DNA from: Hevea brasiliensis
Taxonomy: Eukaryota; Streptophyta; Magnoliopsida; Malpighiales; Euphorbiaceae
Direction: 5' to 3'
NCBI RefSeq assembly: GCF_030052815.1
Contig: NC_079496.1
Coordinates: 79,163,652-79,227,651 of the forward strand
Length of the DNA stretch: 64,000 bases
The notes beneath the pieces were generated by a model. That model was not told where the DNA came from. It made no database searches and saw nothing but the letters and a program-made list of their open reading frames with translations. Within the stretch, counting starts at the first letter, position 1. Each line of letters starts with the position of its first letter. Positions 2,939 to 45,544 of this stretch are shown piece by piece. A program made the translations under genes and the position numbers.

Positions 2939-2939
<1 letters not shown>

Positions 2940-4007
2940 CAAGGAGACCCAAAGATCGAAAGGGGGATGAGCTAACAGGGAAGAAGCAATAATCTAGATC
3001 TTGAATAATATATAAACAATTAAAGAAATAAACAAAATGCACAAGAAAGGAAATCTTCAGAAATGAAAATTAAACTTGTAAATTAAAGAAATATATATAT
3101 TCTATAGGCGGCAGAGCCAGTCCGTTAAGAATATATATAAAATTAAATTTGTAAATTTAAATATGAATATACATGTATATATTCAATAGGCGGCAGAGCC
3201 AGTCCGTTATGAACATATATACGTATATTTATGCAGATCAGGCGGTTGAACCGACCATATGCATGCTAAAGCAATAAATTTGAAACTTTGTAAAAGAAAT
3301 TGAAGAAAACTTACTTCAAAATCTTATAAATTTTTGTAAGATTTGTACAAAGGGCTTGGAGATGTAATTCCGGGTAGGACTTACAAAGGTTGCTCAACAC
3401 ATGAGCTTCCTAAGATCTACTACAAGGAAGTACAAGGGTTTGTAAGTTTGTAGGTGAGGTAGAGGTAGGGCTAGATGGGAAGTGAATCGACCTTCTTGCT
3501 CCTTCTGAACCTCGGCGAGAAACCTTCTAGGACTTGAGAAGCTTGGGGATGGAGAAGCTTGGAGAGGCTTTGGCTCCTTTGTAAAAGCTCTGAAGTTCCA
3601 AAGAAAGCTCTTCGTTTGCCTTGGATGAATGCCTCCTTAAATAGAAGGGTCCAGGGGCAGTTTTGTAATTTTGGAAAGTTTGAACAGTGTCTGCCACTTG
3701 ATGCCTTCACGTGTGAACAGTGATTCTTGTCTCCTTCACATGCGAACAGTAAAAAGTGAACAGTACAAGATATGACAGGTGAACAGTGTCCTGTCTGGTT
3801 TTGAAATAAAGTAAAGAAAACAAAGTAAAAATGATTATAAAAAGAAAATAAAGAGAAAGGTAAAAATTAAAAGTAGAAAAGAGAATAAAGAGCAAGATAG
3901 ATAATTTTGCCGCCATAAATTTCTTTTGCCGGTCTTAAATCTTTTCTTTTTCTTTTTCTTTTTTTTTTTTTTTTTTTTTAATTGGAGTGGAGCTTGGACC
4001 ACTCGTG
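2939..4007 (-). promoter_or_regulatory. Viral intergenic region, copy 1: purine tract, promoter, leader
   Basis: In virus sense, a purine-rich tract (about 3979-3939) follows the last stop and could prime plus-strand DNA. Five TGAACAGT/CGAACAGT-type octamers (plus-strand 3681-3787) and a CACGTG G-box (3708-3713) lie upstream of a TATA-like TATTTAAGG (3643-3635). The transcribed leader then runs to the primer-binding site and carries three hairpin-forming GC islands (3110-3265). By homology with Caulimoviridae this region drives the pregenomic RNA; the exact start site is not known. Confidence 0.7.
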
Positions 4008-5299
4008 CTAGCCTTCCAACATATTTTGTAGGTTGTGCCATGTTTCCTCATCATTACTTGTTTCGTCATCGGACGAGACAGAAGATAAGTCGTAGTAGCT
4101 TTCATATTGAACCATGTAATTTTCATACTGGGTTTCAATGTGAAAGGGTTTTGGATTCGGCAAATGTTCGTAATGAACGAATATCCGAGAATATGTACCT
4201 GTATGGACTAGTATATACTCTGGATATCTATATTTTCGCCAGTTGTCAACGACTGTCTTTGCTCGCCATTTGTTGAGTTGGACGAAATAATCTTCATGAT
4301 TGCATGGCCAATCTGGAAGATGATAGAGAGGAGGAAGTTTTGTATCCAGGTAGAAGTAATGGATTGCTTGTTGGAGCTCTCCATTTGCTAATACTTCTGG
4401 AGGTGTTGAAATTATTTGTAAGTTGACAGGTTTCTGGAGTAATAATAGTCTTCTGACTTCTTGAAGGACTCTATTTCCCAAAAACCTTATCATTTCACAA
4501 TCAAATTTTGTAACTCGAACTCCAGCTAACATACCCCATTTGAATAGTTCTCGCGCCTAGATACCGGTACTGCACATCCGAGTGGTTTTGAAGCGGAATC
4601 TTTGTCAAATCTAAGCCGTGTTCACAATTTGGATAGCACAGAGGTCGCGAGTTGTGACGGTCTGAGTGCGATGAAAACGGGTTTTGAGTAGTACTCCCAT
4701 TCCCATGACCATCTATTTTGACCTTGCTGATTGCTTTTTGTAAAGTTGAGACCTTTTTGGAAAACATCCAGCTGTTCTTTGATTCTGGACTGGATGATAT
4801 TTTGTAGGATCTGCTCGCGGATCTCTTGAGGAAGACCGTTGAGAACTTGTTGCCTGAATTTCTTCGAAAGACAACGGGTTTGGAAATGTGCTAAGGACCT
4901 ATTGGCACCAAGTGAAGCAAAGAGGACTTCACTGTGGTGATAATTTTTCACATTGACCAGTGGGGCCAATGGTAATTTTACACTAGAATCCAGTGGGGAT
5001 TCTAGGCCTTCAGTCCTTCGTCTTTGAATTTTTACACTAGAATCCAGTGGGGATCCTAGGCCTTCAAATTCCTGTTTTTGTAATTCAAGGTGATGATTTT
5101 GGTTAGAAGTGGATGGATCTGATGGACTAATTCTGGATGTAATGGATTTGTATAAAATTTGGTTTTGTAAAAACTCAATGAATGATTGAGCTACCATGAT
5201 ATGATCCTCATGATATTTAATTCTGCTAAGGAGGTCAGCCACATAATTATTAGCTTCTTCAAACTCAACACAAAGTGCATTGAGAGCTGAAACTCCCAA
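4008..5299 (-). pseudogene. Unknown C-terminal module of component B, copy 1
   Basis: Occupies the place where reverse transcriptase normally follows protease, but no RT or RNase H motif is present. The first half is open to 4622 and includes a duplicated EGL(G/E)SPLDSSVK motif and a Gln-rich helical stretch. The second half (4532-4008) is a 174-codon frame with an aromatic-rich block and a strongly acidic end before a TAG at 4008-4010. The two halves are separated by small indels near 4550-4640. Function unknown. Confidence 0.7.
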
Positions 5300-6616
5300 T
5301 CGTTTGTTTTGTATTAGAGTCCAAAGATTATCTAATAAACATTGGTGCCTCTCTGAGGGAACATATGCAGTTCTGGCTACATTAATTCTGAATTTCTGAG
5401 CAGGAGTTTTGGAGAGGATTATTGGTCCAAAATGGACTAAATCTCCATTGTTGGGTGATTCTGTCATCTGCAAAAACTCATGAGGGTTAGTTTGTAATAA
5501 GCAGTAATCAAATTGATTTTTGAAAACAAGCTTGTTTAAAAAGAATCGTGTTTTTTGTAAATGCGGTCTTGTTTCCTGTTCCAAAACATTTATTTGATTA
5601 TCAAAAATGGAATAAGCCTTTATGATATTCAGATTTTCTGTTTTGGGTTTTTCAACAAAAGGAAAAACAAGATTTTGATTTTTTGTTTTAAAAGAAATAC
5701 TATCATAGTTGACTTTGTAGGGAGTAATCAAATTAATGAAAGGAGTCCCTAAAATGACACTATGACTGATATCTTTTATTAAAACAAATGAAGTTTGTAG
5801 AAGAAGATTTGAACTGGCTATTGAAGCCTCTGTTTTGTAATTAATTTTGATTTTGGAATTGTTTGCAGCTGAAAGATTTTCAGTAGTTTTTTCTTGGAAT
5901 TTTTCTGGAACAATGCCGTCTTTAATACAATTTATATCTGCACCTGTATCAAATAAGGCAATTGTATCGATCCTGAAATCTTTTGAAAAAACTATCGAAA
6001 TTCTAATCAAATATTTTCTGAAAGAAATCTCATTAAGAATGAAGAGAAAATCCTTTGTAGGTTTTTCAAGACTTTGAATTTCTAAAGTATTTTCTTCATC
6101 TTCTTTTTCGACTTCTTCATTGATTTGTTTTGAAAGTAATATTTGAAGTGTTTCTGAGTCCTGTGCCTGTTTTTCCTTAAGCTCGTTAAGTTCAATCTTA
6201 TGATTGTTATTTCTTCTGGAGGCTTTGGATCAAAGCTTGGTTGGTTGTTTTGAAGTCTTATTTCTACCCAATATGGCCGTAAGGTCATATGTGTTTTTTG
6301 AAACAGAAGGCAGAATAGAAGGTTTTTGTATTGGTTGTTCTTCAAAGGTTTTTAAAAGTTTTCCTAAAAATTCCTGTTGTAGTTGAGAATCTTCAACCTG
6401 TGTAAGGATTTCTAAGAGTAACTTCTGGTCTTTTGAAAGAACATTGATTTTCAATTTTGATTTTGTAAACAGTTCATTTTCTGTTTCAGAATCTGAACTT
6501 GTGATTAATTCATCAATTTGTAATCCTTCTTCTGTGGGTTCAGAATTACTGGACTCACCTTCAGTTTCAATCAAAAGAGCAGTTATCTTATTAATAACTT
6601 CTTCTTCTAATTGCAA
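5300..6616 (-). pseudogene. Aspartic protease region, copy 1
   Basis: Retropepsin-like protease that would process the polyprotein. The active-site DTGAD lies at 5936-5950 and the downstream VILGTPFI (flap-distal ILG) near 5737-5760. A Glu/Lys-rich helical linker (6616-6230) precedes it, and a frameshift near 6220-6240 separates the two. From about 6010 the frame is open through the protease and onward to 4622, the longest uninterrupted protease-to-C-terminal stretch in the cluster. Confidence 0.85.
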
Positions 6617-8229
6617 CTCATGAAGTTTTTTGTTTAATTTGCAAAAATTTGCAGTGTGGCCTTTGTTACCACATTTGTAACAAGTCCAATTTTTGAACTT
6701 TGTTTTGGATTGAGGACTAGGTTTGCTAGTCTTTTTTGAAGGTTTTTTGTAATAGGAATCTTTTTCTAGTTTTGAAGAGTTTTGTATTTTTGGGATGATT
6801 TTTTGTAAGGTTTTCTGCTACAACTTCCTCCACAGTCTGGAGTAGGGTTTTTGGTTCCTATTTCAAATTGTTTGCAGAAAGATCCTAACTCTTGACGAGT
6901 TTTTCTCATTTCCCATTTCAAATGTTTTTGTAATTTCAAATCCTGACAGATTTTTAAACCTTCTTTTTGAGTGAGACTGACTAGTTCACCATAGGTTAAT
7001 TTTTCATACGTGATTTGATTTCCAAATGCTTCCTTAATTTTATTCCTAACCTTTTCTCCTAAAAGGATCGGAAGTCCAGCAAGGAATTTTTCTTTCCAAA
7101 AGGGCTGACTAGAATCTTCTCTAAGCATTACCCTAGTAAGGAAAGTGGTTTTGTAATACTGAAAATTACTTAGTTTTTTGCATCTAAGGTTTGAAAGGAG
7201 TTCGGCATTTTTATCCTTAAGATGAGATGGGTCACCTACGAAGTGTAAGGAGATTGTCACTATCAAGGTGGCTACTGCATCTGGGATTGGTTGGCCGAAC
7301 TCATCAAGAATTGGCACGCCATCTTCTTGAGTTTGTATGGATTCTAGAATCTCAGATTTTTGTAGGTTCGTGAGATGATAATCCCACCATCCTTTGAGCT
7401 GCCCTGAGAATCCTGCAATGAGGAGTTCAGCAATAGCTCTGTCTGGGGTTCCAGTTTGGGTTTTGTAAGCATTTGCTGCCATGGTCATTTGCTGGAGCAA
7501 ATTCAAGATGTTGTATTCAGAATTACCATCTATGTTCCATTCATAGACAATAGAGGCATTGAATTTAGACTGGGTTAGGATTTCAGATCTATTTTCTATG
7601 CCTAAGTCTGGAGCTGTTATTGGAACGGGTGTTGCTACCCGCGGCCAATAAAGTTTATTGATTTGTAAGGGTTTTGAAGACTGAATTTCTTCAGTTTGGA
7701 TGGGCTGGTTTTCTTGGCTTTGGATATCTGAATCTGAATCTTCCTCAATTATATTGACACTCCTTTGGGAAGTTTGAGGTGTTTCAGGTGCTACTGGAGT
7801 AGAAGTCGAAGCTTCTAGCCTAGTCTTTATGTCTCTCAAAGCCTGAATGAACTCAGAATTGTTATTATTTTGTAAATCTTTTTGACTGTTTTTGGAAACT
7901 TGGAATGGTTTGAAAATTGGGTTTTTCAATTTTGTATCCGGCTTTGTTTCAACTTGGGAAACTGTAGCCTGTTGGTTTTGTTCCATTTTTTGTAATTGCT
8001 TACCAATGGTATGCAAATGGGCATTTGTAAAGTTATTCTGTAAAACAACGTTTTTTATGTTCACAGAATCACTTTCATTTGGAATTTTGTAAGGGGCTGC
8101 TTCTACTGTTTGTTCCAAGTGGGGAATTTTTACTATCCTAAGAGGAGGATGTTCAGACTGTATTTTTCTACCATCTGAAATTTCCCATTCAGGAACTTTG
8201 TTTCTATAAGAATGTGATTTCTGAGACAA
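6617..8229 (-). pseudogene. Coat-protein region with zinc knuckle, copy 1 (broken)
   Basis: Open from 8229 to 6766 (487 codons), the longest coat-protein stretch in the window. It has an acidic, Gln-rich N-terminal part, then the capsid core with LIAGFSGQLKGWWDYHLT near 7380-7440, as in caulimovirid capsid proteins. A basic Lys/Ser tail leads to a CCHC knuckle (CYKCGNKGHTANFC, 6641-6682), which binds RNA during packaging. The frame ends at a TAG at 6766; beside it copy 1 lacks one base present in copies 2 and 5, and has CTAG where they have CCAG. Confidence 0.85.
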
Positions 8230-8407
8230 TTAGGATTGATTTTGAAAGGGTTTCTTTTGTAATTCAAAGGTTTTTGAGGTTTTGTTCCTTTAAAACCTTT
8301 TGTTTTGAATTCTTAACGATATGAGGTTGTGATGCTTTTTCTTACGTTTGTTTAGCGAGATAGTTTTCTTACGCTTTCCTTAGAAGATCTTTTAGAGCCG
8401 CAATGAA

Positions 8408-9922
8408 CTACGATCGATTATCTTCTGGCTCCTGTTGTTTTGGTTTTGTAATTGGAGAAGGTTTTGAAACTGGAACTGATTTTTTGAAAGTTTTTGGAGT
8501 TTTTGAAAACGGATATGAAATGTTATGCTCTTTAGCATACATCTCAAACCAATCAAAGAAAAGAATATGAACCTTGTGTTGGTGTACAAAGTCATAATAT
8601 TTCTTTTGAATTTCTTCCCTTCGACCAGTGAAATTTTTGAAAAACCATATTTGCCTTTTATGATTTTTAGGAGAATAAAAATCATCATGCAAATATTGTC
8701 TGTCTACTTCAAATTCTTTTTCAAGCACATTAAGTTCATGGTTTACATTTTCTGTAATGGCTGAAAAGGTAGGAGAAGTAGGTTCTGACTCTGTTTGGGT
8801 TTCATCCTGAACAGGCTCGTTTTGTAAATTTGTATAAACTGGATGTGGAACATTTGTAGAGTAATTTACGTATTGTAAAGTGGATCTAGGTATTTCTGAA
8901 GTAGAAAACCTAGAAGAGCTAGGTAAATCTGAGGTAGAATACCTAGGCTGAATATTTTGTATTTCAATTGGTTTTGTGATAGGCAAACTAATGACAGAAG
9001 GTATACGAGACACTCTTCCTATGTCAACAGTACTGGATGTTGAGGAATCATCTGAAAACCTAAGGCTTCTGTTAAAGCTAAGGCTGACTCTTCCATCGTC
9101 ATACTGGGTTACTTGCCTAAGTTGAACATTTGGCTCAACTAATTTTGAAGATTCTGGTTCCACTGCACCTTCTAAAATCCATTCTTCTGGTAGGGTTATG
9201 TCCTTCCATTGGATAGATGTAGGGATTACAGTATTGGATTTTGTAAGATCAGTTTGTAAAAGCAAAGTTTCTCCTCTTTTGCTTTGAAACTTATGTTTTG
9301 TTGCAAAAGCAGAAATCATAGCTTTGTAATGAATTTTGTAAATCAGTGCAAGAGGAATAGATCCTTCAAGCATTTTGTAATTGTGAGTTTTGATTTGTAA
9401 AACAAGAGATTTTGTAATATTACTGTCGTTTAAAGAAACCGTAAAATTTGGATAGCAATCAAAAGATATTGGTCCATTGCACAGACGAGACTCGACTGAA
9501 CTAAGCAAGGAGTCCTGAAAGTTTATGAACCTAGTATCTCTAAGAACTGCTAGGATTGAGGTGTTCAACCCTTCTTTTGTAAGCGGTTTAATTCCAACTT
9601 GGACTAAACCTATGTGGATGTATTTGTATTGTTTTTCACGGTGTTTTTGTAAGGATTTTTGAGACAGAAGAGAAATCGTCTCAAAGGGTTTTGTAATCTG
9701 AAGATCTCTCTCTTCAGTTTTGATTGTGAAATCAGTTTTGAAAAAATTGAGTTATGTAGTCTGATAGATTTGATCCTTTTGTACTTTTGGAATTTCCCAA
9801 TTATCTATACAATTTTCAAAATTTTCGATTACTATTTCTTCACTATTAACTATCTTTCTCGACTCGGAGGATGAGGTAGAAGAGTTTGAAGAAGAAACTG
9901 TCCTACAGAAAATTGGATTCAT
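8408..9922 (-). pseudogene. Movement-protein region, copy 1 (broken)
   Basis: N-terminal part of the viral polyprotein, with ATG at 9922. It matches the caulimovirid movement protein of the 30K superfamily, which binds nucleic acid and modifies plasmodesmata for cell-to-cell spread. Visible signatures are CNGPISFDCYPNF near 9440-9480 and a GSIPLALIYKIHYKAM block near 9320-9370. An in-frame TAA lies at 9752-9754, where other copies have lysine. The frame then runs open from 9751 to a TAG at 8408-8410, which falls on a TCTG-to-TACG difference of the type that recurs across the window. A Ser/Thr-rich linker and a charged helical tail follow the core. Confidence 0.85.
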
Positions 9923-10136
9923 ACTTAAAGAATTTTACCAGGTTGATCTTTTGAGTTAAGTGAGGTAACCGCACCAGGAATCACTGCCCTAAAACGCCCT
10001 CTCGGCTAAACACGGGACTTACAACCCAGGCCTATTTACACCTCTAAAGAAGCTGTCTTATCACCTTAAGATCATCTTACTAACCTCTCAAAATGTTTAA
10101 ATGTGAATCCGAACCTTAAATAGAACCTTTTCCCCC

Positions 10137-10152
10137 CCAGGCTCTGATACCA
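10137..10152 (-). promoter_or_regulatory. tRNA-iMet primer-binding site, copies 1/2 junction
   Basis: In virus sense it reads TGGTATCAGAGCCTGG, the canonical caulimovirid primer-binding site. It marks nucleotide 1 of copy 1 and abuts the 3' end of copy 2. Confidence 0.9.
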
Positions 10153-11159
10153 AGGAGACCCAAAGATCGAAAGGGGGATGAGCTAACAGGGAAGAAGCAA
10201 TAATCTAGATCTTGAATAATATATAAACAATTAAAGAAATAAACAAAATGCACAAGAAAGGAAATCTTCAGAAATGAAAATTAAACTTGTAAATTAAAGA
10301 AATATATATATTCTATAGGCGGCAGAGCCAGTCCGTTAAGAATATATATAAAATTAAATTTGTAAATTTAAATATGAATATACATGTATATATTCAATAG
10401 GCGTGAGCGATCCGTTATGAACATATATACGTATATTTATGCAGATCAGGCGGTTGAACCGACCATATGCATGCTAAAGCAATAAATTTGAAACTTTGTA
10501 AAAGAAATTGAAGAAAACTTACTTCAAAATCTTATAAATTTTTGTAAGATTTGTACAAAGGGCTTGGAGATGTAATTCCGGGTAGGACTTACAAAGGTTG
10601 CTCAACACATGAGCTTCCTAAGATCTACTACAAGGAAGTACAAGGGTTTGTAAGTTTGTAGGTGAGGTAGAGGTAGGGCTAGATGGGAAGTGAATCGACC
10701 TTCTTGCTCCTTCTGAACCTCGGCGAGAAACCTTCTAGGACTTGAGAAGCTTGGGGATGGAGAAGCTTGGAGAGGCTTTGGCTCCTTTGTAAAAGCTCTG
10801 AAGTTCCAAAGAAAGCTCTTCTTTTGCCTTGGATGAATGCCTCCTTAAATAGAAGGGTCCAGGGGCAGTTTTGTAATTTTGGAAAGTTTGAGCGATTATG
10901 CGCCACTTGATGCCTTCACGTGTGAGCAGTGATTCTTGTCTCCTTCACATGCGAGCAGTAAAAAGTGAGCGATTACAAGATATGACAGTGAGCGATGTCT
11001 GTCTGGTTTTGAAATAAAGTAAAAGAAAACAAAGTAAAAATTATTATAAAAATAAAATAAAGAGAAAGGTAAAAATTAAAAGTAGAAAAGAGAATAAAGA
11101 GCAAGATAGATAATTTTGCCGCCATAAATTTCTTTTGCCGGTCTTAAATCTTTTCTTTT

Positions 11160-11194
<35 letters not shown>

Positions 11195-11218
11195 GGGGTG
11201 GTGCTTGGACCACTCGTG
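10150..11218 (-). promoter_or_regulatory. Viral intergenic region, copy 2
   Basis: TATTTAAGG box at 10851-10843, long T tract on the plus strand (11166-11193), and the leader with hairpin islands. Several TGAACAGT octamers here read GAGCGAT or GAGCAGT, and one of the two GGCGGCAGAGCC islands (near 10400) is altered, all at CAG positions. Confidence 0.7.
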
Positions 11219-12514
11219 CTAGCCTTCCAACATATTTTGTAGGTTGTGCCATGTTTCCTCATCATCACTTGTTTCGTCATCGGACGAGACAGAAGATAAG
11301 TCGTAGTAGCTTTCATATTGAACCATGTAATTTTCATACTGGGTTTCAATGTGAAAGGGTTTTGGATTCGGCAAATGTTCGTAATGAACGAATATCCGAG
11401 AATATGTACCTGTATGGACTAGTATATACTCTGGATATCTATATTTTCGCCAGTTGTCAACGACTATCTTTGCTCGCCATTTGTTGAGTTGGACAAAATA
11501 ATCTTCATGATTGCATGGCCAATCTGGAAGATGATAGAGAGGAGGAAGTTTTGTATCCAGGTAGAAGTAATGGATTGCTTGTTGGAGCTCTCCATTTGCT
11601 AATACTTCTGGAGGTGTTGAAATTATTTATAAGTTGACAGGTTTCTGGAGTAATAATAGTCTTCTGACTTCTTGAAGGACTCTATTTCCCAAAAACCTTA
11701 TCATTTCACAATCAAATTTTGTAACTCGAACTCCAGCTAACATACCCCATTTGAATAGTTCTCGGGCGTCTAGATACCGGTGCACGGACATCCGAGTGGT
11801 TTTGAAGCGGGAATCTTTGAAATCTAAGCTGTGTTCACAATTTGGATAGCACAGAGGTCGCAGGTTGTGACGGTCCTGAGTGCAGTGAAAACGGGGTTTT
11901 GAGTAGTACTCCCATTCCCATGACCATCCATTTTGACCTTGCTGATTGCTTTTTGTAAAGTTGAGACCTTTTTGGAAAACATCCAGCTGTTCTTTGATTC
12001 TGGACTAGATGATATTTTGTAGGATCTGCTCGCGGATCTCTTGAGGAAGACCGTTGAGAACTTGTTGCCTGAATTTCTTCGAAAGACAACGGGTTTGGAA
12101 ATGTGCTAAGGACCTATTGGCACCAAGTGAAGCAAAGAGGACTTCACTGTGGTGATAATTTTTCACATTGACCAGTGGGGCCAATGGTAATTTTACACCA
12201 GAATCCAGTGGGGATTCTAGGCCTTCAGTCCTTCATCTTTGAATTTTTACACTAGAATCCAGTGGGGATCCTAGGCCTTCAAATTCCTGTTTTTGTAATT
12301 CAAGGTGATGATTTTGGTTAGAAGTGGATGGATCTGATGGACTAATTCTGGATGTAATGGATTTGTATAAAATTTGGTTTTGTAAAAACTCAATGAATGA
12401 TTGAGCTACCATGATATGATCCTCATGATATTTAATTCTGCTAAGGAGGTCAGCCACATAATTATTAGCTTCTTCAAACTCAACACAAAGTGCATTGAGA
12501 GCTGAAACTCCCAA
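11219..12514 (-). pseudogene. Unknown C-terminal module of component B, copy 2 (broken)
   Basis: Same module as in copy 1, without RT motifs. The open stretch 12514-12233 ends at a stop just after the duplicated SPLDSSVK block. The distal aromatic/acidic part remains recognisable up to the TAG at 11219-11221. Confidence 0.65.
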
Positions 12515-13815
12515 TCGTTTGTTTTGTATTAGAGTCCAAAGATTATCTAATAAACAATGTTGCCTCTACGAGGAACATATGCGATTCTGCTACATTAATT
12601 ACGAATTTACGGCGGGGAGTTTTGGAGAGGATTATTGGTCCAAAATGGACTAAATCTCCATTGTTTGGTGATTACGTCATCTGCAAAAACTCATGAGGTT
12701 AGTTTGTAATAGCGATAATCAAATTGATTTTTGAAAACAAGCTTGTTTAAAAAGAATCGTGTTTTTTGTAAATGCGGTCTTGTTTCCTGTTCCAAAACAT
12801 TTATTTGATTATCAAAAATGGAATAAGCCTTTATGATATTCAGATTTTCTATTTTGGGTTTTTCAACAAAAGGAAAAACAAGATTTTGATTTTTTGTTTT
12901 AAAAGAAATACTATCATAGTTGACTTTGTAGGGAGTAATCAAATTAATGAAAGGAGTCCCTAAAATGACACTATGACTGATATCTTTTATTAAAACAAAT
13001 GAAGTTTGTAGAAGAAGATTTGAACTGGCTATTGAAGCCTCTGTTTTGTAATTAATTTTGATTTTGGAATTGTTTGCAGCTGAAAGATTTTCAGTAGTTT
13101 TTTCTTGGAATTTTTCTGGAACAATGCCGTCTTTAATACAATTTATATCTGCACCTGTATCAAATAAGGCAATTGTATCGATCCTGAAATCTTTTGAAAA
13201 AACTATCGAAATTCTAATCAAATATTTTCTAAAAGAAATCTCATTAAGAATGAAGAGAAAATCCTTTGTAGGGTTTTCAAGACTTTGAATTTCTAAAGTA
13301 TTTTCTTCATCTTCTTTTTCGACTTCTTCATTGATTTGTTTTGAAAGTAATATTTGAAGTGTTTCTGAGTCCTGTGCCTATTTTTCCTTAAGCTCGTTAA
13401 GTTCAATCTTAGCAATGTTATTTCTTCTGGAGGCTTTGGGTAAAGCAGTTGGTTGTTTTGAAGTCTTCTTTCTACCCAATATGGCCGTAAGGTCATATGT
13501 GTTTTTTGAAAGCGAGAATAGAAGGTTTTGTATTGGTTGATCTTCAAATGATTTTAAAGGTTTTCCGAAAAATTCCTGTTGTAGTTGAGAATCTTCAACC
13601 TGTGTAAGGATTTCTAAGAGTAACTTCTGGTCTTTTGAAAGAACATTGATTTTCAATTTTGATTTTGTAAACAGTTCATTTTCTGTTTCAGAATCTGAAC
13701 TTGTGATTAATTCATCAATTTGTAATCCTTCTTACGTGGGTTGATTCATGGACTCACCTTGATTTCAATCAAAGAAGCGATTATCTTATTAATAACTTCT
13801 TCTTCTAATTGCAAC
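12515..13815 (-). pseudogene. Aspartic protease region, copy 2 (broken)
   Basis: DTGAD active site at 13147-13161 in an open stretch from 13221 to 12691. The end of the open stretch coincides with small base losses (12560-12720) relative to copy 1. A linker fragment precedes it at 13656-13378. Confidence 0.8.
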
Positions 13816-15400: not shown

Positions 15401-15469
15401 GATTATGACAGTTTTCTTTCTGTTTGCTTAGCAGACAATTTTTCTTCTGCTTTCTTTAGAAGATCTTTT

Positions 15470-16996: not shown

Positions 16997-17213
16997 ACTT
17001 AAAGAATTTTACCAGGTTGATCTTTTGAGTTAAGTGAGGTAACCGCACCAGGAATCACTGCCCTAAACACGCCATCTCGGCTACAAAGACGGGACTTACA
17101 ACCCAGGCCTATTTACACCTCTAAAGAAGCTGTCTTATCACCTTAAGATCATCTTACCAACCTCTCAAAATGTTTAAATGTGAATCCGAACCTTAAATAG
17201 AACCTTTTCCCCC

Positions 17214-25446: not shown

Positions 25447-25482
<36 letters not shown>

Positions 25483-29700: not shown

Positions 29701-29759
29701 ATTAACAGACAGTTTTCTTTCTGTTTGCTTAGCAGACAATTTTTCTTCTGCTTTCTTTA

Positions 29760-34578: not shown

Positions 34579-35910
34579 TTGGATTTAAAGAAAAAAGGAT
34601 TAATTACAGAATCTAGATTTCCTTGGAGTTGTGCAGCTTTTTATGTGAACAAAAATTCAGAAATAGAAAGAGGCACTCCTAGATTAGTAATTAATTACAA
34701 ACCTTTGAATAAAGCTTTGAAATGGATCAGGTATCCAATTCCAAACAAAAAAGATCTTTTACAAAAACTTCATTCTACATTTGTGTTTTCCAAATTTGAT
34801 ATGAAATCAGGATTTTGGCAAATACAAATTGATCCAAGAGATAGATACAAAACCGCATTCACAGTTCCCTTTGGACAATATGAGTGGAAAGTCATGCCTT
34901 TTGGCCTGAAAAATACCCCATCAGAATTCCAGAGAATTATGAATGAAATCTTCAATCCATATTCAAAATTTTGCATAGTCTACATAGATGATGTTCTTGT
35001 GTTCTCGGAGTCAATTGAACAACACTTCAAACACTTAAGAACATTATTCTCTGTTACAAAACGAAATGGCCTTGCCGTTTCAAAATCAAAGATTTCTCTT
35101 TTCCAAACCAGAGTTAGGTTTCTAGGTCATTACATATCCCAAGGAACCATTACTCCAATAGAGAGAAGTCTAGAATTTTCAAACAAATTTCCAGACAAAA
35201 TCTTAGATAAAATCCAGCTGCAAAGATTCTTAGGTAGCTTAAATTATGTCTTAGATTTTTGTCCGAATATTAACCGTCTAGCAAAACCCTTGCATGATAG
35301 GTTAAAGAAAAACCCTGTTCCATGGACAGATCATCACACTGAAGTGATCCGTCATATCAAAAGCAGTCCAAACCATTCCTTATGCGCATTTGGCAGATCC
35401 ATTAGCCCCTAAGGTAGTCGATACAGATGCCTCAGATTTAGGTTTTTTTTGAATTTAAAAACAACTTCAATCCGGAAAAGAAAAAATAGTTCAGTTCCAT
35501 TATGCACATTGGAATGATTGTCAATAGAAATACTCTACCATCAAAAAAGAGATTCTTGCAATTGTCATGTGCATACAAAAATTTCAAAGTGATTTATTAA
35601 ATCAAAAATTTTTACTTAGAATTGATTGCAAATCAGCCAAAGAAGTTTTGCAAAAAGATGTTCAAAATCTTGCATCAAAACAAATTTTTGCACGATGGCA
35701 AGCAATTTTAAGTATTTTTGATTTTGAAATTGAATTTATAAAAGGAGATACAAATTCCATCCTGGACTTTCTAACGGAGAATTTCTTCAAGACAGGCCAA
35801 TGCCCAGAAAGAAAAATACCAAGGCTGAAGCCTCAGCCTCTACAAAACCAAACCCTACAAAACCTATCATCTCTTCTGCAAAACCTATTCAAACTTGGCG
35901 GACATGGTGA
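34579..35910 (+). pseudogene. Reverse transcriptase and RNase H, component A (broken)
   Basis: RT palm motifs are clear: FSKFDMKSGFWQIQ (motif A, near 34786-34830), MPFGLKNTPSEFQRIM, and the catalytic YIDDVLVFS at 34981-35007, then FLGHYIS and the connection domain. The first 277 codons are open to 35412, where a frameshift enters RNase H. Its catalytic positions are still visible (DTDAS near 35419, KEILA near 35547, IDCKSA near 35620, and a distal GDTNSILDF near 35745). The copy has a stop near 35453 and changes of frame. The final frame ends at TGA 35908-35910, overlapping the start of ORF2. The enzyme would copy pregenomic RNA into DNA; this copy is not intact. Confidence 0.9.
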
Positions 35911-37250
35911 GCGAAGAAGAAGATCAAACAAAATTTATTGTATCTCGGGCTCCAAAGCAGACGGTGATTCAAAAATGGATAGAATCACTGTCCAAATCTC
36001 CTGAAGTTCTTCAGGCTCTACAAAACATAACTCAGGCCTATCAGGCCCAGAAAGGTAAATCTACAAAACCTATTTCCAAAACCCAGGGGAAAGGAGAGTC
36101 TTCCTCTCAAAAAACCCTTTCTCAAAATTTTCAAAACATTTCTCAAGCCCATGAGATTTTACAAATAGATTTTCAAACCGATGTTTCCCAACCAAATTCT
36201 TCTCAAATAGTTTTGTCTCAAACAAAATTAAAAAAGAAGTCTTCGGAATGGATTACAAAAACCCATTTTCAAAATATTTTGATCATAGAGGATGAGTTCT
36301 TACACCAAGATGCCTCTATGGCAATTTCAAAAGCCTTTACAAAAGGATGGTATTACAAACCTTGGGATCTTTCCAAAACCCAAGCCTACTACTAGGCAAT
36401 ACTTGAATTTACTGGCTCAGCAAAATTCAAACATTTTTATCTAAAAGAAAATAATGTTGATCCGGCTTATTCAACCTGCCATATTCAAAACGTCCTTAAT
36501 CCTTCTGATTGGGGACAAGACCTTACAAAACCAAAAATCTTCCCATTATCATTCCAAAACAAGATTGACCATTGCCAACATTTCAATTACTGGGATTACC
36601 AACAGGCATGGTACAATACCTTTCTCATACAAAATCACAAGAATAGTCATTCATGGCTGTTCTATTTCCAAAAAACATTTGATCCTTCCAAAACCCCTTC
36701 ATGGTTTGCTCAGTGGTGGAAGTATTTTGGTGCACTACCTGAAATTCTTACACCAGAAATATCAGAGAGTTTAAACCTTTTCAAAACCCATTACAAACCC
36801 TCACCCAAAGAGAAAAGGTTTCCTCCTCTTCTCTTGTTCTCTTCAAAATTCTTTTTACCTTGGGTTCTTATCTGGTTCTTTGAATTTCGACCGCAAGATG
36901 GACTGAATACAATCATCAGAAGGTTCAAGGTAAAATGGTGGGATTCATTTAATATCCCAGAAACAATTACAAACAAAGGAGTAAAAACCTGGCTTAAGGG
37001 AAAAAGCCTTTTGCCACCAACTCCTATACAAAACTTTTCAAATCAATTATTTTTGGCCCAAAGATCACATGCTATGGCAAGATTAGCAGGAGCTAAAAAT
37101 GATGAAGAATATTTTGCAATAATGGAACAATTATTGCAAAACAGAACCAATTCATCTGCAGCCAATTCTGACTCAGAACCCATCATAGACTTGGGAGATG
37201 ATGATGAAGAAGGTTGTGGTACCTTTTCACAAATACAAAATCTGTTGTAA
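35904..37250 (+). pseudogene. ORF2 of component A, unknown function, one stop
   Basis: I choose ATG at 35904 because it overlaps the upstream polyprotein stop as ATGGTGA, a compact start-stop arrangement. The frame has 448 sense codons and is interrupted only by a TAG at 36393-36395. The N-terminal third is Gln/Ser/Lys-rich and probably disordered. The middle is rich in aromatic residues, with repeated Trp (WLFYFQKTF, WFAQWWKYF, WWDSF). The end is acidic (DLGDDDEEG) and closes with IQNLL. I recognise no catalytic motif. Florendoviruses carry a second ORF of unknown function in this position, which is the best comparison. Confidence 0.75.
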
Positions 37251-38281
37251 AAAGAGTGGTCCCAGCTCCACTCCATAAAAAAAAAAAAAAAAAAAAGAAA
37301 AGAAAAATTTAAGACCGGCAAAAGAAATTTATGGCGGCAAAATTATCTATCTTGCTTTTTACTTTTTAAAATTTTGCACTTTTACTTTTCTTTGTTTTCT
37401 TTTACTTTATTTCAAAACCAGACAGGACACTGTTCACCTGTCATATCTTGTACTGTTCACTTTTTACTATTCGCATGTGAAGGAGACAAAAATCACTGTT
37501 CACACGTGAAGACATCAAGTGGCAGACACTGTTCAAACTTTCCAAAATTACAAAGCTGCCCCTGGACCCTTCTATTTAAGGAGGCATTCATCCAAGGCAA
37601 GAAAAGAGCTTTCTTTGGAACTTCAGAGCTTTTACAAAGGAGCCAAAGCCTCTCCAAGCTTCTCCATCCCCAAGCTTCTCAAGTCCTAGAAGGTTTCTCG
37701 CCGAGGTTCAGAAGGAGCAAGAAGGTCGATTCACTTCCCATCTAGCCCTACCTCTACCTCACCTACAAACTTACAAACCCTTGTACTTCCTTGTAGTAGA
37801 TCTTAGGAAGCTCATGTGTTGAGCAACCTTTGTAAGTCCTACCCGGAATTACATCTCCAAGCCCTTTGTACAAATCTTACAAAAATTTATAAGATTTTGA
37901 AGTAAGTTTTCTTCAATTTCTTTTACAAAGTTTCAAATTTATTGCTTTAGCATGCATATGGTCGGTTCAACGCTTTGACCGCATAAATATACGTATATAT
38001 GTTCATAACGGACTGGCTCTGCCGCCTATTGAATATATACATGTATATTCATATTTAAATTTACAAATTTAATTTTATATATATTCTTAACGGACTGGCT
38101 CTGCCGCCTATAGAATATATATATTTCTTTAATTTACAAGTTTAATTTTCATTTCTGAAGATTTCCTTTCTTGTGCATTTTGTTTATTTCTTTAATTGTT
38201 TATATATTATTCAAGATCTAGATTATTGCTTTGTCCCTGTTAGCTCATCCCCCTTTCGATCTTTGGGTGTCCTTGGTATCA
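37251..38281 (+). promoter_or_regulatory. Viral intergenic region, component A
   Basis: A purine tract (37276-37310) follows the stop, then the octamer cluster in TGTTCAC orientation (about 37420-37545), TATTTAAGG at 37573-37581 and the leader. It matches the B region almost base for base from about 37255, a few nucleotides after the ORF2 stop. Its promoter would read rightward through the tail-to-tail joint into copy 5 in antisense. Confidence 0.75.
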
Positions 38282-39328
38282 GGGGGATGAGCTAACAGGG
38301 AAGAAGCAATAATCTAGATCTTGAATAATATATAAACAATTAAAGAAATAAACAAAATGCACAAGAAAGGAAATCTTCAGAAATGAAAATTAAACTTGTA
38401 AATTAAAGAAATACATATATTCTATAGGCGGCAGAGCCAGTCCGTTAAGAATATATATAAAATTAAATTTGTAAATTTAAATATGAATATACATGTATAT
38501 ATTCAATAGGCGGCAGAGCCAGTCCGTTATGAACATATATACGTATATTTATGCAGATTAGGCGGTTGAACCGACCATATGCATGCTAAAGCAATAAATT
38601 TGAAACTTTGTAAAAGAAATTGAAGAAAACTTACTTCAAAATCTTATAAATTTTTGTAAGATTTGTACAAAGGGCTTGGAGATGTAATTTCGGGTAGGAC
38701 TTACAAAGGTTGCTCAACACATAAGCTTCCTAAGATCTACTATAAGGAAGTACAAGGGTTTGTAAGTTTGTAGGTGAGGTAGAGGTAGGGCTAGATGGGA
38801 AGTGAATCGACCTTCTTGCTCCTTCTGAACCTCATGAGAAACCTTCTAGGACTTGAGAAGCTTGGGGATGGAGAAGCTTGGAGAGGCTTTGGCTCCTTTG
38901 TAAAAGCTCTGAAGTTCCAAAGAAAGCTCTTCGTTTGCCTTGGATGAATGCCTCCTTAAATAGAAGGGTCCAGGGGCAGTTTTGTAATTTTGGAAAGTTT
39001 GAACAGTGTCTGCCACTTGATGCCTTCACGTGTGAACAGTGATTCTTGTCTCCTTCACATGCGAACAAAGAAAAAGTGAGCGACAAGATATGACAGTGAA
39101 CAAAGGTCCTGTCTGGTTTTGAAATAAAGTAAAAGAAAACAAACTAAAAATGATTAAAAAAGTAAAATAAATAGAAACGAAAAAAATAAAATTATAAAAG
39201 AGAATAAATAGCAAGATAGATAAATTTGACGCCATAAATTTCTTTTTGGCCTTAAATCTTTCTTTTTCTTTTTTTTTTCTTTTTTTTTTTCTTTTTTTTT
39301 TATCGGAGTGGAGCTTGGACCACTCGTG
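38282..39328 (-). promoter_or_regulatory. Viral intergenic region, copy 5
   Basis: TATTTAAGG at 38962-38954, octamers partly altered (GAACAAAG near 39064 and 39098), mixed T/C tract at 39264-39301, and both GGCGGCAGAGCC islands intact (near 38430 and 38510). Its promoter points leftward into component A, converging on the promoter of that copy. Confidence 0.7.
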
Positions 39329-40645
39329 CTAGCCTTCCAACATATTTTGTAGGTTGTGCCATGTTTCCTCATCATCACTTGTTTCGTCATCGGACGAGAC
39401 AGAAGATAAGTCGTAGTAGCTTTCATATTGAACCATGTAATTTTCATACTGGGTTTCAATGTGAAAGGGTTTTGGATTCGGCAAATGTTCGTAATGAACG
39501 AATATCCGAGAATATGTACCTGTATGGACTAGTATATACTCTGGATATCTATATTTTCGCCAGTTGTCAACGACTGTCTTTGCTCGCCATTTGTTGAGTT
39601 GGACGAAATAATCTTCATGATTGCATGGCCAATCTGGAAGATGATAGAGAGGAGGAAGTTTTGTATCCAGGTAGAAGTAATGGATTGCTTGTTGGAGCTC
39701 TCCATTTGCTAATACTTCTGGAGGTGTTGAAATTATTTGTAAGTTGACAGGTTTCTGGAGTAATAATAGTCTTCTGACTTCTTGAAGGACTCTATTTCCC
39801 AAAAACCTTATCATTTCACAATCAAATTTTGTAACTCGAACTCCAGCTAACATACCCCATTTGAATAGTTCTCGGGTGTCTAGATACCGGGTACTGCATA
39901 TCCGAGTGGTTTTGAAGCGGGAATCTCAAATCTAAGCTGTGTTCACAATTTGGATAGCACAGAGGTCGCAGGTTGTGACGGTCCTGAGTGCAGTGAAAAC
40001 GGGGTTTTGAGTAGTACTCCCATTCCCATGACCATCCATTTTGACCTTGCTGATTGCTTTTTGTAAAGTTGAGACCTTTTTGGAAAACATCCAGCTGTTC
40101 TTTGATTCTGGACTGGATGATATTTTGTAGGATCTGCTCGCGGATCTCTTGAGGAAGACCGTTGAGAACTTGTGTCCTGAATTTCTTCGAAAGACAACGG
40201 GTTTGGAAATGTGCTAAGGACCTATTGGCACCAAGTGAAGCAAAGAGGACTTCACTGTGGTGATAATTTTTCACATTGACCAGTGGGGCCAATGGTAATT
40301 TTACACTAGAATCCAGTGGGGATTCTAGGCCTTCAGTCCTTCGTCTTTGAATTTTTACACTAGAATCCAGTGGGGATCCTAGGCCTTCAAATTCCTGTTT
40401 TTGTAATTCAAGGTGATGATTTTGGTTAGAAGTGGATGGATCTGATGGACTAATTCTGGATGTAATGGATTTGTATAAAATTTGGTTTTGTAAAAACTCA
40501 ATGAATGATTGAGCTACCATGATATGATCCTCATGATATTTAATTCTGCTAAGGAGGTCAGCCACATAATTATTAGCTTCTTCAAACTCAACACAAAGTG
40601 CATTGAGAGCTGAAACTCCCAATCGTTTGTTTTGTATTAGAGTCT
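39329..40645 (-). pseudogene. Unknown C-terminal module of component B, copy 5
   Basis: 266 open codons (40622-39822) then 174 codons (39853-39329), with a frame change near 39885-39930. Features in order are an Asp/Glu/Leu-rich helix with ADLLSRIKYHED, the duplicated EGL(G/E)SPLDSSVK motif, a Gln/Arg helix, a YPNCEH segment, an aromatic stretch with CNHEDYF, and an acidic tail SSDDETSDDEETW ending LQNMLEG. There is no YIDD or RNase H motif. I do not recognise a fold. It could assist replication or act as a regulatory protein, but neither is shown. Confidence 0.7.
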
Positions 40646-41939
40646 AAAGATTATCTAATAAACATTGGTGCCTCTCTGAGGGAACATATGCAGTTCTGGC
40701 TACATTAATTCTGAATTTCTGAGCAGGAGTTTTGGAGAGGATTATTGGTCCAAAATGGACTAAATCTCCATTGTTGGGTGATTCTGTCATCTGCAAAAAC
40801 TCATGAGGGTTAGTTTGTAATAAGCAGTAATCAAATTGATTTTTGAAAACAAGCTTGTTTAAAAAGAATCATGTTTTTTGCAAATGCGGTCTTGTTTCCT
40901 GTTCCAAAACATTTATTTGATTATCAAAAATGGAATAAGCCTTTATGATATTCAGATTTTCTGTTTTGGGTTTTTCAACAAAAGGAAAAACAAGATTTTG
41001 ATTTTTTGTTTTAAAAGAAATACTATCATAGTTGACTTTGTAGGGAGTAATCAAATTAATGAAAGGAGTCCCTAAAATGACACTATGACTGATATCTTTT
41101 ATTAAAACAAATGAAGTTTGTAGAAGAAGATTTGAACTGGCTATTGAAGCCTCTGTTTTGTAATTAATTTTGATTTTGGAATTGTTTGCAGCTGAAAGAT
41201 TTTCAGTAGTTTTTTCTTGGAATTTTTCTGGAACAATGCCGTCTTTAATACAATTTATATCTGCACCTGTATCAAATAAGGCAATTGTATCGATCCTGAA
41301 ATCTTTTGAAAAAACTATCGAAATTCTAATCAAATATTTTCTGAAAGAAATCTCATTAAGAATGAAGAGAAAATCCTTTGTAGGTTTTTCAAGACTTTGA
41401 ATTTCTAAAGTATTTTCTTCATCTTCTTTTTCGACTTCTTCATTGATTTGTTTTGAAAGTAATATTTGAAGTGTTTCTGAGTCCTGTGCCTGTTTTTCCT
41501 TAAGCTCGTTAAGTTCAATCTTAACAGCTGTTATTTCTTCCTGGAGGCTTTGGATCAAACAGCTTGGTTGTTTTGAAGACTTCTTTCTACCAAATATCGC
41601 CGTAAGGTAATATGTGTTTTTTGAAAAATAATGAAGAATAGAAGGTTTTTGTATTGGTTGTTCTTCAAAGGTTTTTAAAAGTTTTCCTAAAAATTCCTGT
41701 TGTAGTTGAGAATCTTCAACCTGTGTAAGGATTTCTAAGAGTAACTTCTGGTCTTTTGAAAGAACATTGATTTTCAATTTTGATTTTGTAAACAGTTCAT
41801 TTTCTGTTTCAGAATCTGAACTTGTGATTAATTCATCAATTTGTAATCCTTCTTCTGTGGGTTCAGAATTACTGGACTCACCTTCAGTTTCAATCAAAAG
41901 AGCAGTTATCTTATTAATAACTTCTTCTTCTAATTGCAA
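40646..41939 (-). pseudogene. Aspartic protease region, copy 5
   Basis: 356 open codons (41939-40869) run from just after the knuckle through an acidic/helical linker into the protease, with DTGAD at 41259-41273 and VILGTPFI near 41060-41083. The frame ends in a TGA (40866-40868) where other copies read CGA, a C-to-T change in a CpG. A second stop (TAG at about 40644-40646) stands where others have TGG. Confidence 0.87.
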
Positions 41940-43530
41940 CTCATGAAGTTTTTTGTTTAATTTGCAAAAATTTGCAGTGTGGCCTTTGTTACCACATTTG
42001 TAACAAGTCCAATTTTTGAACTTTGTTTTGGATTGAGGACTAGGTTTGCTAGTCTTTTTTGAAGGTTTTTTGTAATAGGAATCTTTTTCTGGTTTTGAAG
42101 AGTTCTTGTATTTTTGGGATGATTTTTTGTAAGGTTTTCTGCTACAACTTCCTCCTGATGCAGAGTAGGGTTTTGGTTCCTATTTCAAATTGTTTGCAGA
42201 AAGATCCTAACTCTTGTGAGATTTTCTCATTTCCCATTTCAAATGTTTTTGTAATTTCAAATCCTGACAGATTTTTAAACCTTCTTTTTGAGTGAGACTG
42301 ACTAGTTCACCATAGGTTAATTTATCATACGGGATTTGATTTCCAAAGGCTTCCTTAATTTTATTCCTAACCTTTTCTCCTAAAAGGATCGGAAGTCCAG
42401 CAAGGAATTTTTCTTTCCAAAAGGGTTGACTAGAATCTTCTCTAAGCATTACCCTAGTAAGGAAAGTGGTTTTGTAATACTGAAAATCACTCAGTTTTTT
42501 GCATCTAAGGTTTGAAAGGAGTTCGACATTTTTATCCTTAAGATGAGATGGGTCACCTACAAAGTGTAAGGAGATTGTCACAATCAAGGTGGCTACTGCA
42601 TCTGGGATTGGTTGGCCTAACTCATCAAGAATTGGCACGCCATCTTCTTGAGTTTGTATGGATTCTAGAATCTCAGATTTTTGTAGGTTCGTGAGATGAT
42701 AATCCCACCATCCTTTGAGCTGCCCTGAGAATCCTGCAATGAGGAGTTCAGCAATAGCTCTGTCTGGGGTTCCAGTTTGGGTTTTGTAAGCATTTGCTGC
42801 CATGGTCATTTGCTGGAGCAAATTCAAGATGTTGTATTCAGACATACCATCTATGTTCCATTCATAGACAGTAGAGGCATTGAATTTAGACTGGGTTAGG
42901 ATTTCAGATCTATTTTCTATGCCTAAGTCTGGAGCTGTTATTGGAAGGGGTGTTGCTACCTGCGGCCAATAAAGTCTATTGATTTGTAAGGGTTTTGAAG
43001 ACTGAATTTCTTCAGTTTGGATGGGCTGGTTTTCTTGGCTTTGGATATCTGAATCTGAATCTTCCTCAATTATATTGACACTCCTTTGGGAAGTTTGAGG
43101 TGTTTCAGGTGCTACTGGAGTAGAAGTCAAAGCTTCTAGCCTAGTTTTCATATCTCTCAAAGCCTGAATGAACTCAGAATTGTTGTTGTTTTGTAAATCT
43201 TTTTTACTGTTTTTGGAAACTTGGAATGGTTTGAAAATTGGGTTTTTCAATTTTGTATCCGGCTTCGTTTCAACTTGGGAAACTGTAGCCTGTTGGTTTT
43301 GTTCCATTTTTTGTAATTGCTTACCAATGGTATGCAAATGGGCATTTGTAAAGTTATTCTGTAAAACAATGTTTTTTATATTCACAGAATCACTTTCATT
43401 TGGAATTTTGTAAGGGGCTGCTTCTACTGTTTGTTCCAAGTGGGGAATTTTTACTATCCTAAGAGGAGGATGTTCAGACTGTATTTTTCTACCATCTGAA
43501 ATTTCCCATTCAGGAACTTTGTTTCTAACG
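41940..43530 (-). pseudogene. Coat-protein region with zinc knuckle, copy 5
   Basis: 410 open codons (43439-42207) cover the Gln-rich N-terminal part, an acidic EEDSDSD stretch and the capsid core with GQLKGWWDYHL. The frame is lost at 42207, just before the basic tail. The CCHC knuckle lies at 41963-42004. Just upstream, 43519-43590 is a cluster of differences from copy 4 in which every change sits on CAG or CTG. Confidence 0.87.
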
Positions 43531-43622
43531 ATAAGGATTATGAGCAGTTTTCTTTACATTTGCTTAGCGAGACAATTTTCTTACGCTTTCTTTAGAAGAT
43601 CTTTTAGAGCAGCAATGAACTC

Positions 43623-45131
43623 TCATCGATTATCTTCTGGCTCCTGTTGTCTAGGTTTTGTAATTGGAGAAGTTTTTGAAGCTGAACGATTTTTGAAAGT
43701 TTTTGGAATTTTTGAAAACGGATATGAAATGTTGTGCTCTTTAGCATACATCTCAAACCAATCAAAGAAAAGAATATGAACTCTGTGTTGGTGTACAAAG
43801 TCATAATATTTCTTTTGAATTTCTTCCTTTCGACCAGTGAAATTTTTGAAAAACCATATTTGCTTTTTATGATTTTTAGGAGAATAAAAATCATCATGCA
43901 AATACTGTCTGTCTACTTCAAATTCTTTTTCAAGCACATTAAGTTCATGGTTTACATTTTCTGTAATGGCTGAAAAGGTAGGAGAAGTAGGTTCTGACTC
44001 TGTTTGGGTTTCATCCTGAACAGACTCGTTTTGTAAATTTGTATAAACTGGGTGTGGAACATTTGTAGAGTAATTCACGTTTTGTAAAGTGGATCTAGGT
44101 ATTTCTGGAGTAGAGAACCTAGAAGAGCTAGGTAAATCTGATGTAGAATACCTAGGCTGTATATTTTGTATTTCAATTGGTTTTGTAATAGGCAAACTAA
44201 TGACAGAAGGTATACGAGACACTCTTCCTATGTCAACAGTACTGGATGTTGAGGAATCATCTGAAAACCTAAGGCTTCTGTTAAAGCTAAGGCTGACTCT
44301 TCCATCGTCATACTGGGTTACTTGCCTAAGTTGAACGTTTGGCTCAACTAATTTTGAAGATTCTGGTTCCACTGCACCTTCTAAAATCCATTCTTCTGGT
44401 AGGGTTATGTCCTTCCATTGGATAGATCTAGGGATTACAGTATTGGATTTTGTAAGATCAGTTTGTAAAAGCAAAGTTTCTCCTCTTTTGCTTTGAAACT
44501 TATGTTTTGTTGCAAAAGCAGAAATCATAGCTTTGTAATGAATTTTGTAAATCAGTGCAAGAGGAATAGATCCTTCAAGCATTTTGTAATTGTGAGTTTT
44601 GATTTGTAAAACAAGAGATTTTGTAATGTTACTGTCACTTAAGGAAACAGTAAAATTTGGATAGCAATCAAAAGATATTGGTCCATTGCACAAACTAGAC
44701 TCGACCGAACTAAGCAAGGAGTCCTGGAAGTTTATGAACCTAGTATCTCTAAGAACTGCTAGGATTGAGGTGTTCAACCCTTCTTTTGTAAGCGGTTTAA
44801 TTCCAACTTGGACTAAACCTATGTGGATGTATTTGTATTGTTTTTCACGGTGTTTTTGTAAGGATTTTTGAGACAGAAGAGAAATCGTCTCAAAAGGTTT
44901 TGTAATCTGAAGATCTCTCTCTTCAGTTTTGATTGTGAAATCAGTTTTGAAAAAATTGAGTTTTGTAGTCTGATAGATTTGATCTTTTTGTACTTTTGGA
45001 ATTTCCCAATTATCTATACATTTTTCAAAATTTTCGATTACTATTTCTTCACTATTAACTATCTTTCTCGACTCGGAGGACGAGGTAGAAGAGTTTGAAG
45101 AAGAAACTGTCCTACAGAAAATTGGATTCAT
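43623..45131 (-). pseudogene. Movement-protein region, copy 5 (longest)
   Basis: 502 open codons from ATG 45131. Residues about 1-70 are Ser-rich then charged. The 30K core spans about residues 75-260, with GLVQVGIKPLT, CNGPISFDCYPNF and GSIPLALIYKIHYKAM visible. A Ser/Pro-rich linker follows, then a charged, aromatic helical tail that would link to the coat protein. The frame ends in a TGA at 43620-43622 made by a C-to-G difference within a CAG present in copies 2, 3 and 4. Caulimovirid movement proteins form tubules or gate plasmodesmata; assignment is by motif. Confidence 0.9.
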
Positions 45132-45544
45132 ACTTAAAGAATTTTACCAGGTTGATCTTTTGAGTTAAGTGAGGTAACACTTTGCAGAATCACCGCCTAA
45201 ACACGCCATCTCGGCTACAAAGACGGGACTTACAACCCAGGCCTATTTACACCTCTAAAGAAGCTGTCTTATCACCTTAAGATCATCTTACCAACCTCTC
45301 AAAATGTTTAAATGTGAATCCGAACCTTAAATAGAACCTTTTCCCCCCAGGCTTCTATATATGTTTTTTTTTAAACAATTTTTTTTATATTTTAATTATC
45401 AGTAATTAAATTTTTGTTGGAAAAAATTGTGATTGAATTTTAAAATCATAATAAAAAAGATAAAATTAAAAAATTTTGAATAAAATTATAAAAACAAAGA
45501 TTTAAATGGAATGAAATTGCAAAATTTTAATTGTTTAGGCTATC

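What the first reader, a model, noticed from the sequence alone, without database searches (positions are those of the whole stretch)
2939..45353. Two complementary pararetroviral components in one locus: a candidate bipartite genome
All five minus-strand copies encode movement protein, coat protein, knuckle and protease but have no reverse transcriptase or RNase H. The one plus-strand copy has protease, RT and RNase H but no coat protein: only about 0.5 kb of linker separates its movement-protein and protease regions. Neither could replicate and package alone; together they make a full set. Bipartite genomes have been reported for some florendoviruses, otherwise unknown among reverse-transcribing plant viruses. 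Loss by simple deletion is less likely because the modules differ reciprocally, protease is diverged, and the boundaries are the same in all five B copies.
Basis: partly seen in the sequence, partly recalled or inferred. Interest (0 to 1): 0.9.

Follow-up and report, generated by a model that had tools for sequence, protein, structure and literature searches.

The report
Endogenous array of split plant pararetrovirus
A plant chromosome carries a fossil array in which two kinds of virus unit complement each other, one with the coat protein and one with the reverse transcriptase, matching the split-genome florendoviruses already described from grape, rice and sorghum.

Summary
[quoted passage not shown] One plus-strand A unit (6.75 kb) has MP, AP, RT, RNase H and an ORF2, but no CP core or knuckle. 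No unit in the window has both CP and RT.

A and B share leader, MP and intergenic region; in trees A falls among the B variants there. Their APs differ at about 22% of bases, mostly silently (dN 0.17, dS 0.86; 66 of 124 differences at third positions). MP differences are spread evenly over codon positions. So the two APs had probably diverged long under selection, while the common region was still nearly one sequence when the array formed.

Geering et al. 2014 described this arrangement as components A and B of bipartite florendoviruses, including shared loci and TA-repeat insertion. I therefore call it a new member of a known kind, with the genus assigned by architecture. Two points remain open: the B extension shows no detectable similarity to A's ORF2, and the host genome could not be searched for a full-length (CP plus RT) relative.

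The parts
2939..10147 (-). B unit 1 (component B)
   Evidence: left end abuts (TA)n 2887-2937
10153..17224 (-). B unit 2
17230..24421 (-). B unit 3 (CP region dense in small deletions)
24427..31520 (-). B unit 4, head-to-head with A
31531..38280 (+). A unit (component A): MP, AP, RT, RNase H, ORF2; no CP core, no knuckle
38281..45353 (-). B unit 5, tail-to-tail with A
43626..45131 (-). B5 movement protein (PF01107, DUF7588)
42210..43553 (-). B5 coat protein piece (DUF7746, Caulimovir_coat_dom), same frame as MP
40872..42179 (-). B5 zinc knuckle (at 42005) and aspartic protease, same frame
39332..40868 (-). B5 C-terminal extension, no significant match to Pfam, PDB sequences or A ORF2; in B1 its first part is open and continuous with AP (4625-6229)
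31731..33173 (+). A movement-protein region, 90.9-93.5% identical to B but with 36 private small indels
33174..33721 (+). A linker: CP N-terminal edge and the spacer that follows the knuckle in B; CP core and knuckle missing
33722..34285 (+). A aspartic protease, about 22% different from B AP, dN/dS about 0.20
34576..35409 (+). A reverse transcriptase
35528..35824 (+). A RNase H piece
35829..37250 (+). A ORF2 (one in-frame stop), in another frame than RNase H, no family match above cut-off
37254..38254 (+). A intergenic region, 94.2-97.0% identical to B intergenic regions and placed among them
10140..10152 (-). Primer-site motif TGGTATCAGAGCC at a unit border (also 17229 exact, 24426 with 1 mismatch, 31522 with 2; first 9 bases at 38274 +); that it fits tRNA-Met is recalled
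2887..2937 (.). (TA)n simple repeat at the left insertion edge; TATATAT lies at 45356-45362 beyond the right edge

Best explanation
The locus is an endogenous array from a florendovirus-type member of Caulimoviridae whose genome was split into two separately circularised DNAs. Component B supplied MP, CP, the nucleic-acid-binding knuckle and a protease; component A supplied RT, RNase H, ORF2 and its own protease. Both carried the same intergenic region, primer binding site and leader, so A's RT could copy both RNAs and B's CP could package both (inferred, not shown). Template switching between the two RNAs would keep the common region uniform while the private parts diverged (inferred from the mosaic). 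Linear or concatemeric DNA ending at the primer binding site was then captured in a TA repeat by end joining, with A joined head-to-head and tail-to-tail to B units (junctions shown; mechanism inferred).
For: Reciprocal gene sets in 6 of 6 units. Intergenic region 94.2-97.0% and MP 90.9-93.5% identical between A and the five B units, above the >90% and >87% that Geering et al. gave for paired components. A groups with B3 in the intergenic tree (support 0.96), with B1 and B3 in the MP tree (0.98) and with B5 in the leader (0.94), but sits on a long branch (0.33) in AP. AP against B5: dN 0.17, dS 0.86, 66 of 124 differences at third positions, p 7e-6; against B1: dN 0.17, dS 0.83. MP differences away from gaps fall evenly on codon positions (16/16/16 against B1). 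Primer-site motif at unit borders and (TA)n at the insertion edge. ORF2 after RNase H in another frame, which Geering et al. use to tell florendoviruses from PVCV. Best PDB match of the RT is 8r0s 'Enzymatic polyprotein' (3e-71; a caulimovirus enzyme by recall), ahead of Ty3 7q5b (3e-48).
Against: No named florendovirus RT was available, so the genus is assigned by architecture only. The B extension shows no significant similarity to A ORF2, whereas Geering et al. describe it as homologous. B units (7.07-7.21 kb) exceed the 5.5-6.9 kb reported for components. There is only one A copy, and its MP is broken (32 frame-breaking private indels); this may be assembly error or decay. By identity A's MP lies below the B-B range (94.9-99.1%), with 68 private substitutions against 1-29 in the B units. 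The host genome was not searched, so a full-length relative cannot be excluded.
Confidence: 0.8

Rival explanations
1. B is a satellite or defective genome carried by a monopartite helper florendovirus that has both CP and RT; A is a CP-deleted recombinant of that helper that acquired B-like ends.
For: A's linker keeps edges of the CP region, so A comes from a CP-bearing ancestor. The change from about 4-7% (MP away from gaps) to about 22% (AP) divergence fits a recombinant. Geering et al. said a helper cannot be discounted.
Against: A and B together are complete, so no helper is needed. No CP+RT unit lies in the window. Geering et al. report that the same pair of layouts arose on three independent occasions.
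Confidence: 0.13
2. Both unit types arose inside the plant chromosome by deletion and duplication from one integrated full-length virus, with no bipartite virus.
For: Tandem arrays can expand and convert in place (general knowledge); A's CP loss is deletion-like.
Against: The APs differ by dS 0.83-0.86 with protein-level constraint, while the flanks differ by a few percent. Chromosomal decay would not confine divergence to AP nor protect its protein. The B extension has no detectable counterpart in A.
Confidence: 0.04
3. The A/B juxtaposition is partly an assembly artefact of a collapsed or misjoined repeat region.
For: Small private indels are patchy: 36 in A's MP and 23 in B3's CP, against 0-9 in the other copies of the coding blocks. 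34 of the 36 in A's MP are deletions, and substitutions cluster beside gaps (14.7-17.1% against 4.0-6.8% elsewhere). This could be unpolished long reads.
Against: A's private 3 kb, its shared common region and its primer-site junctions are coherent. Base errors do not create missing modules.
Confidence: 0.03

Closest known systems
Bipartite florendoviruses VvinBV, VvinDV, OsatBV and Sorghum bicolor virus, components A and B (Geering et al. 2014, PMC4241990; abstract, passages, sections 5-6)
   Same: A: RT, RNase H, ORF2 with CP partly or wholly deleted. B: MP, CP, AP in one polyprotein with a C-terminal extension and no RT. Near-identical intergenic region and MP, compound A+B loci, frequent TA-repeat insertion, tRNA-Met start.
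   Different: B extension not detectably related to A ORF2; B units slightly longer; the RT falls with RTs from legumes; the array is 42 kb with five B and one inverted A.
Prunus persica virus array, about 42 kb with 5.36 genome copies (Geering et al. 2014, passage)
   Same: Several florendovirus units in one locus.
   Different: Not listed by the passages seen among the bipartite viruses; here two complementary unit types.
Petunia vein clearing virus (Petuvirus; ORF2 contrast from Geering et al.; the rest recalled)
   Same: Polyprotein order MP, CP, AP, RT, RNase H.
   Different: No ORF2; not split.

Membership tests
Caulimoviridae | MP, caulimovirus coat domain, AP, RT and RNase H of caulimovirid type | tested here: met
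   split over two unit types
Florendovirus | ORF1 order MP-CP(zinc)-AP-RT-RH in one polyprotein | tested here: inconclusive
   the order is kept over A and B, and B5 MP, CP, Zn-AP and first extension pieces share one frame (coordinates), but no single unit carries the whole ORF1 and A's frames are broken
Florendovirus | ORF2 in another frame after RNase H, 45-58 kDa, no known homologue | tested here: met
   35829-37250, 472 residues with one internal stop, frame differs from RNase H; both pieces without Pfam match above cut-off; second piece only also without PHROGs or PDB match
Florendovirus | AP-RT-RH1 falls in the florendovirus clade | not testable with these tools
   no named florendovirus or petuvirus RT was at hand; unlabelled or loosely named plant relatives only; viral contigs gave none
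Florendovirus | tRNA-Met primer binding site at genome start | tested here: met
   motif at unit borders; motif itself recalled
Bipartite florendovirus | component A lacks CP wholly or partly, keeps RT, RH, ORF2 | tested here: met
Bipartite florendovirus | component B has MP, CP, AP, no RT | tested here: met
Bipartite florendovirus | intergenic region >90% and MP >87% identical between components | tested here: met
   94.2-97.0% and 90.9-93.5%
Bipartite florendovirus | component B C-terminal extension homologous to ORF2 of A | tested here: inconclusive
   no significant pairwise or profile match (best ORF2 E 0.02 in a four-sequence comparison); reported as more divergent in rice and sorghum; relatives could not be fetched
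Bipartite florendovirus | many independent A and B loci across the host genome | not testable with these tools
   own-genome search unanswered
Ty3/gypsy LTR retrotransposon | flanking LTRs and integrase | not tested
   no LTR or integrase search was aimed at the A and B units; they bear MP and caulimovirus coat domains

The most novel reading that the evidence does not exclude
This is a further, independently split pararetrovirus, from a legume-type lineage, in which component B replaced RT, RNase H and ORF2 with an unrelated extension of about 500 residues of unknown function; the two proteases have specialised for different polyproteins while template switching kept the common region uniform.
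Probability: 0.25. Interest if true: 0.6.

Novelty: new member of a known kind. Interest (0 to 1): 0.4.

Why it matters
Split genomes are described as unique to these florendoviruses among viral retroelements (Geering et al. 2014; review PMC10377300; passages seen). This locus holds both components in one array. It adds a test that I did not see in the passages and sections I read: the private proteases diverged under protein-level selection while the shared region was nearly uniform at integration. That argues for long co-replication over a recent defective pair, and it can be repeated in grape and rice.

Tried and rejected
Integrated deletion derivatives: rejected on AP dN/dS and the mosaic of divergence.

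Decay of A's MP as proof that B supplied MP: not used. The indels are patchy (also in B3's CP), deletion-biased and flanked by clustered substitutions, which fits assembly error as well as relaxed selection.

Selection among B copies: third-position excess is weak in MP, CP and Zn-AP (p 0.07, 0.12, 0.08) and absent in the two parts of the extension (p 0.46 and 0.76). The extension's coding status therefore rests on its open frame, not on substitution pattern.

B extension equals A ORF2: no support. One search's output was cut; in the rows shown its only match below 0.01 was a 16-residue stretch (E 3e-4) at the lysine-rich edge of the shared tail. One search repeated the test on the extension alone: best ORF2 match E 0.02, best RNase H match E 0.012, both only a few bits by phmmer, so neither is counted. 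AlphaFold models of single sequences were useless (pLDDT 34-35) and no fold search was made on them.

Relatives in viral contigs by RT, RT alignment, CP and AP-extension: none confirmed. Genome contigs gave 6 distant RT loci in prokaryote MAGs at 31-37% identity; three of the 6 served as outgroup with the window's Ty3/gypsy RT.

Full report
What is there. The window holds a 42.4-kb array of six pararetroviral units. Five (B) lie on the minus strand and one (A) on the plus strand, between B4 and B5. In B5, MP, CP, zinc knuckle with AP, and the first extension pieces share one reading frame, separated by stops (coordinates). In B1, AP runs into the extension for 535 codons without a stop. In A, AP, RT, RNase H and ORF2 follow one another with a few breaks.

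Presence and absence. CP was found in 5 of 5 B units and not in A. RT was found only in A and in the unrelated Ty3/gypsy element, and MP in all six units. RNase H was found only in A, AP in all six, and the knuckle in 5 of 5 B units and not in A. By DNA, A between 34315 and 37234 matches nothing else in the window.

Borders. Unit borders coincide with a primer-site motif that fits tRNA-Met (the motif is recalled): exact at 10152 and 17229, one mismatch at 24426, two at 31522. A's far end keeps its first nine bases at 38274. The array's left end abuts (TA)n of 25.5 copies, and TATATAT lies just beyond its right end. A meets B4 head-to-head and B5 tail-to-tail, at or within about 20 bases of the primer site.

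How the two types are related. Leader, MP and intergenic region are shared. A is 94.2-97.0% identical to the five B intergenic regions, where B units are 94.1-98.6% identical to one another. For MP it is 90.9-93.5% against 94.9-99.1% among B units, so by identity alone A's MP lies outside the B range. In trees A falls among the B variants: with B3 in the intergenic region (0.96), with B1 and B3 in MP (0.98, on a long branch), with B5 in the leader (0.94). These are unrooted trees of six sequences with few informative sites. AP is different: 75.6-78.6% identical, with A on a branch of 0.33.

Selection. Between A and B5, AP has dN 0.17 and dS 0.86 over 182 codons, with 35, 23 and 66 differences at codon positions 1, 2 and 3 (p 7e-6). 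In MP, away from gaps, A differs from B1 at 48 of 1102 sites, 16 at each codon position; against the other four B units 4.0-6.8%. The simplest account is that MP and the intergenic region were nearly the same sequence in both components when they entered the chromosome and have since drifted, assembly error adding to the difference. The two APs had by then been evolving as working proteins for a long time. Among the B units themselves the third-position excess is weak or absent.

Origin of A and B. A's linker aligns with the start of the CP frame (E 1.5e-6), weakly with residues 101-147 of the B5 CP piece (E 8e-4), and with the spacer after the B knuckle (E 6e-6). So A most likely lost the CP core and the knuckle from a CP-bearing ancestor. 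B has no RT, RNase H or recognisable ORF2. Its 1.5-kb extension has no significant match to A ORF2, to Pfam or to PDB sequences (best E 0.25). Its first part was also scanned against PHROGs (best E 0.12).

Comparison with print. Geering et al. 2014 (PMC4241990; abstract, passages and sections 5-6 seen) describe components A and B with these gene sets in grape, rice and sorghum, with intergenic identity above 90% and MP above 87%, compound A+B loci, and frequent TA-repeat insertion. A review (PMC10377300, passages) adds sugar beet. Passages of PMC5766536 and PMC9719215 say nothing against this. Two paper searches answered and four failed, so I make no claim that this host's virus is unreported. 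In a tree with 29 of the 120 listed relatives (1451 found), A's RT sits with a Cajanus protein and three unlabelled ones (0.94), near Mucuna and Trifolium proteins, though a second Cajanus protein falls elsewhere. A legume-type host is likely but not shown.

Caveats. Private indels are unevenly spread: 36 in A's MP, 23 in B3's CP, 0-9 in the other copies of the coding blocks. Assembly error may explain these, so I draw nothing from broken frames. The B copies disagree on who is closest to whom: B1 is closest to B3 in MP (99.1%), to B5 in the extension (98.9%) and to B4 in the intergenic region (98.6%). That suggests recombination among B genomes or conversion in the array.

Verdict. This is a bipartite florendovirus-type pair in one endogenous array: a new member of a known kind. 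The genus is assigned by architecture. The host-wide count that would exclude a helper virus could not be made.

Noticed in passing
53341-64000: Ty3/gypsy-type LTR retrotransposon on the minus strand: RT related to A's RT at 34%, other domains read by eye from the frames, terminal repeats 95-98% alike at a spacing of about 8.58 kb, primer-site motif with 2 mismatches at 61913.
   Followed up: partly
31531-33173 and 21187-22685: Patches dense in small deletions with neighbouring substitutions (A leader and MP, B3 CP), possibly unpolished assembly.
   Followed up: partly
6885-8409 and 21187-22685 against 14081-15486, 28369-29787, 42207-43622: B1 and B3 carry a stretch of roughly 100 bases near the start of the CP frame that B2, B4 and B5 lack; A's DNA match reaches furthest with B1 and B3.
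   Followed up: partly
2939-45353: Closest pairs among B units change from block to block, a sign of recombination or conversion.
   Followed up: no
47989-48706 and 52439-53329: Segments about 65-75% alike repeated in the right flank, nature unknown.
   Followed up: no
L001-L006; P0083: Prokaryote MAG contigs with distant retroelement-type RT, and a protein labelled Flavobacterium that is 67% identical to this plant-virus RT; probably eukaryotic contamination of MAGs.
   Followed up: no
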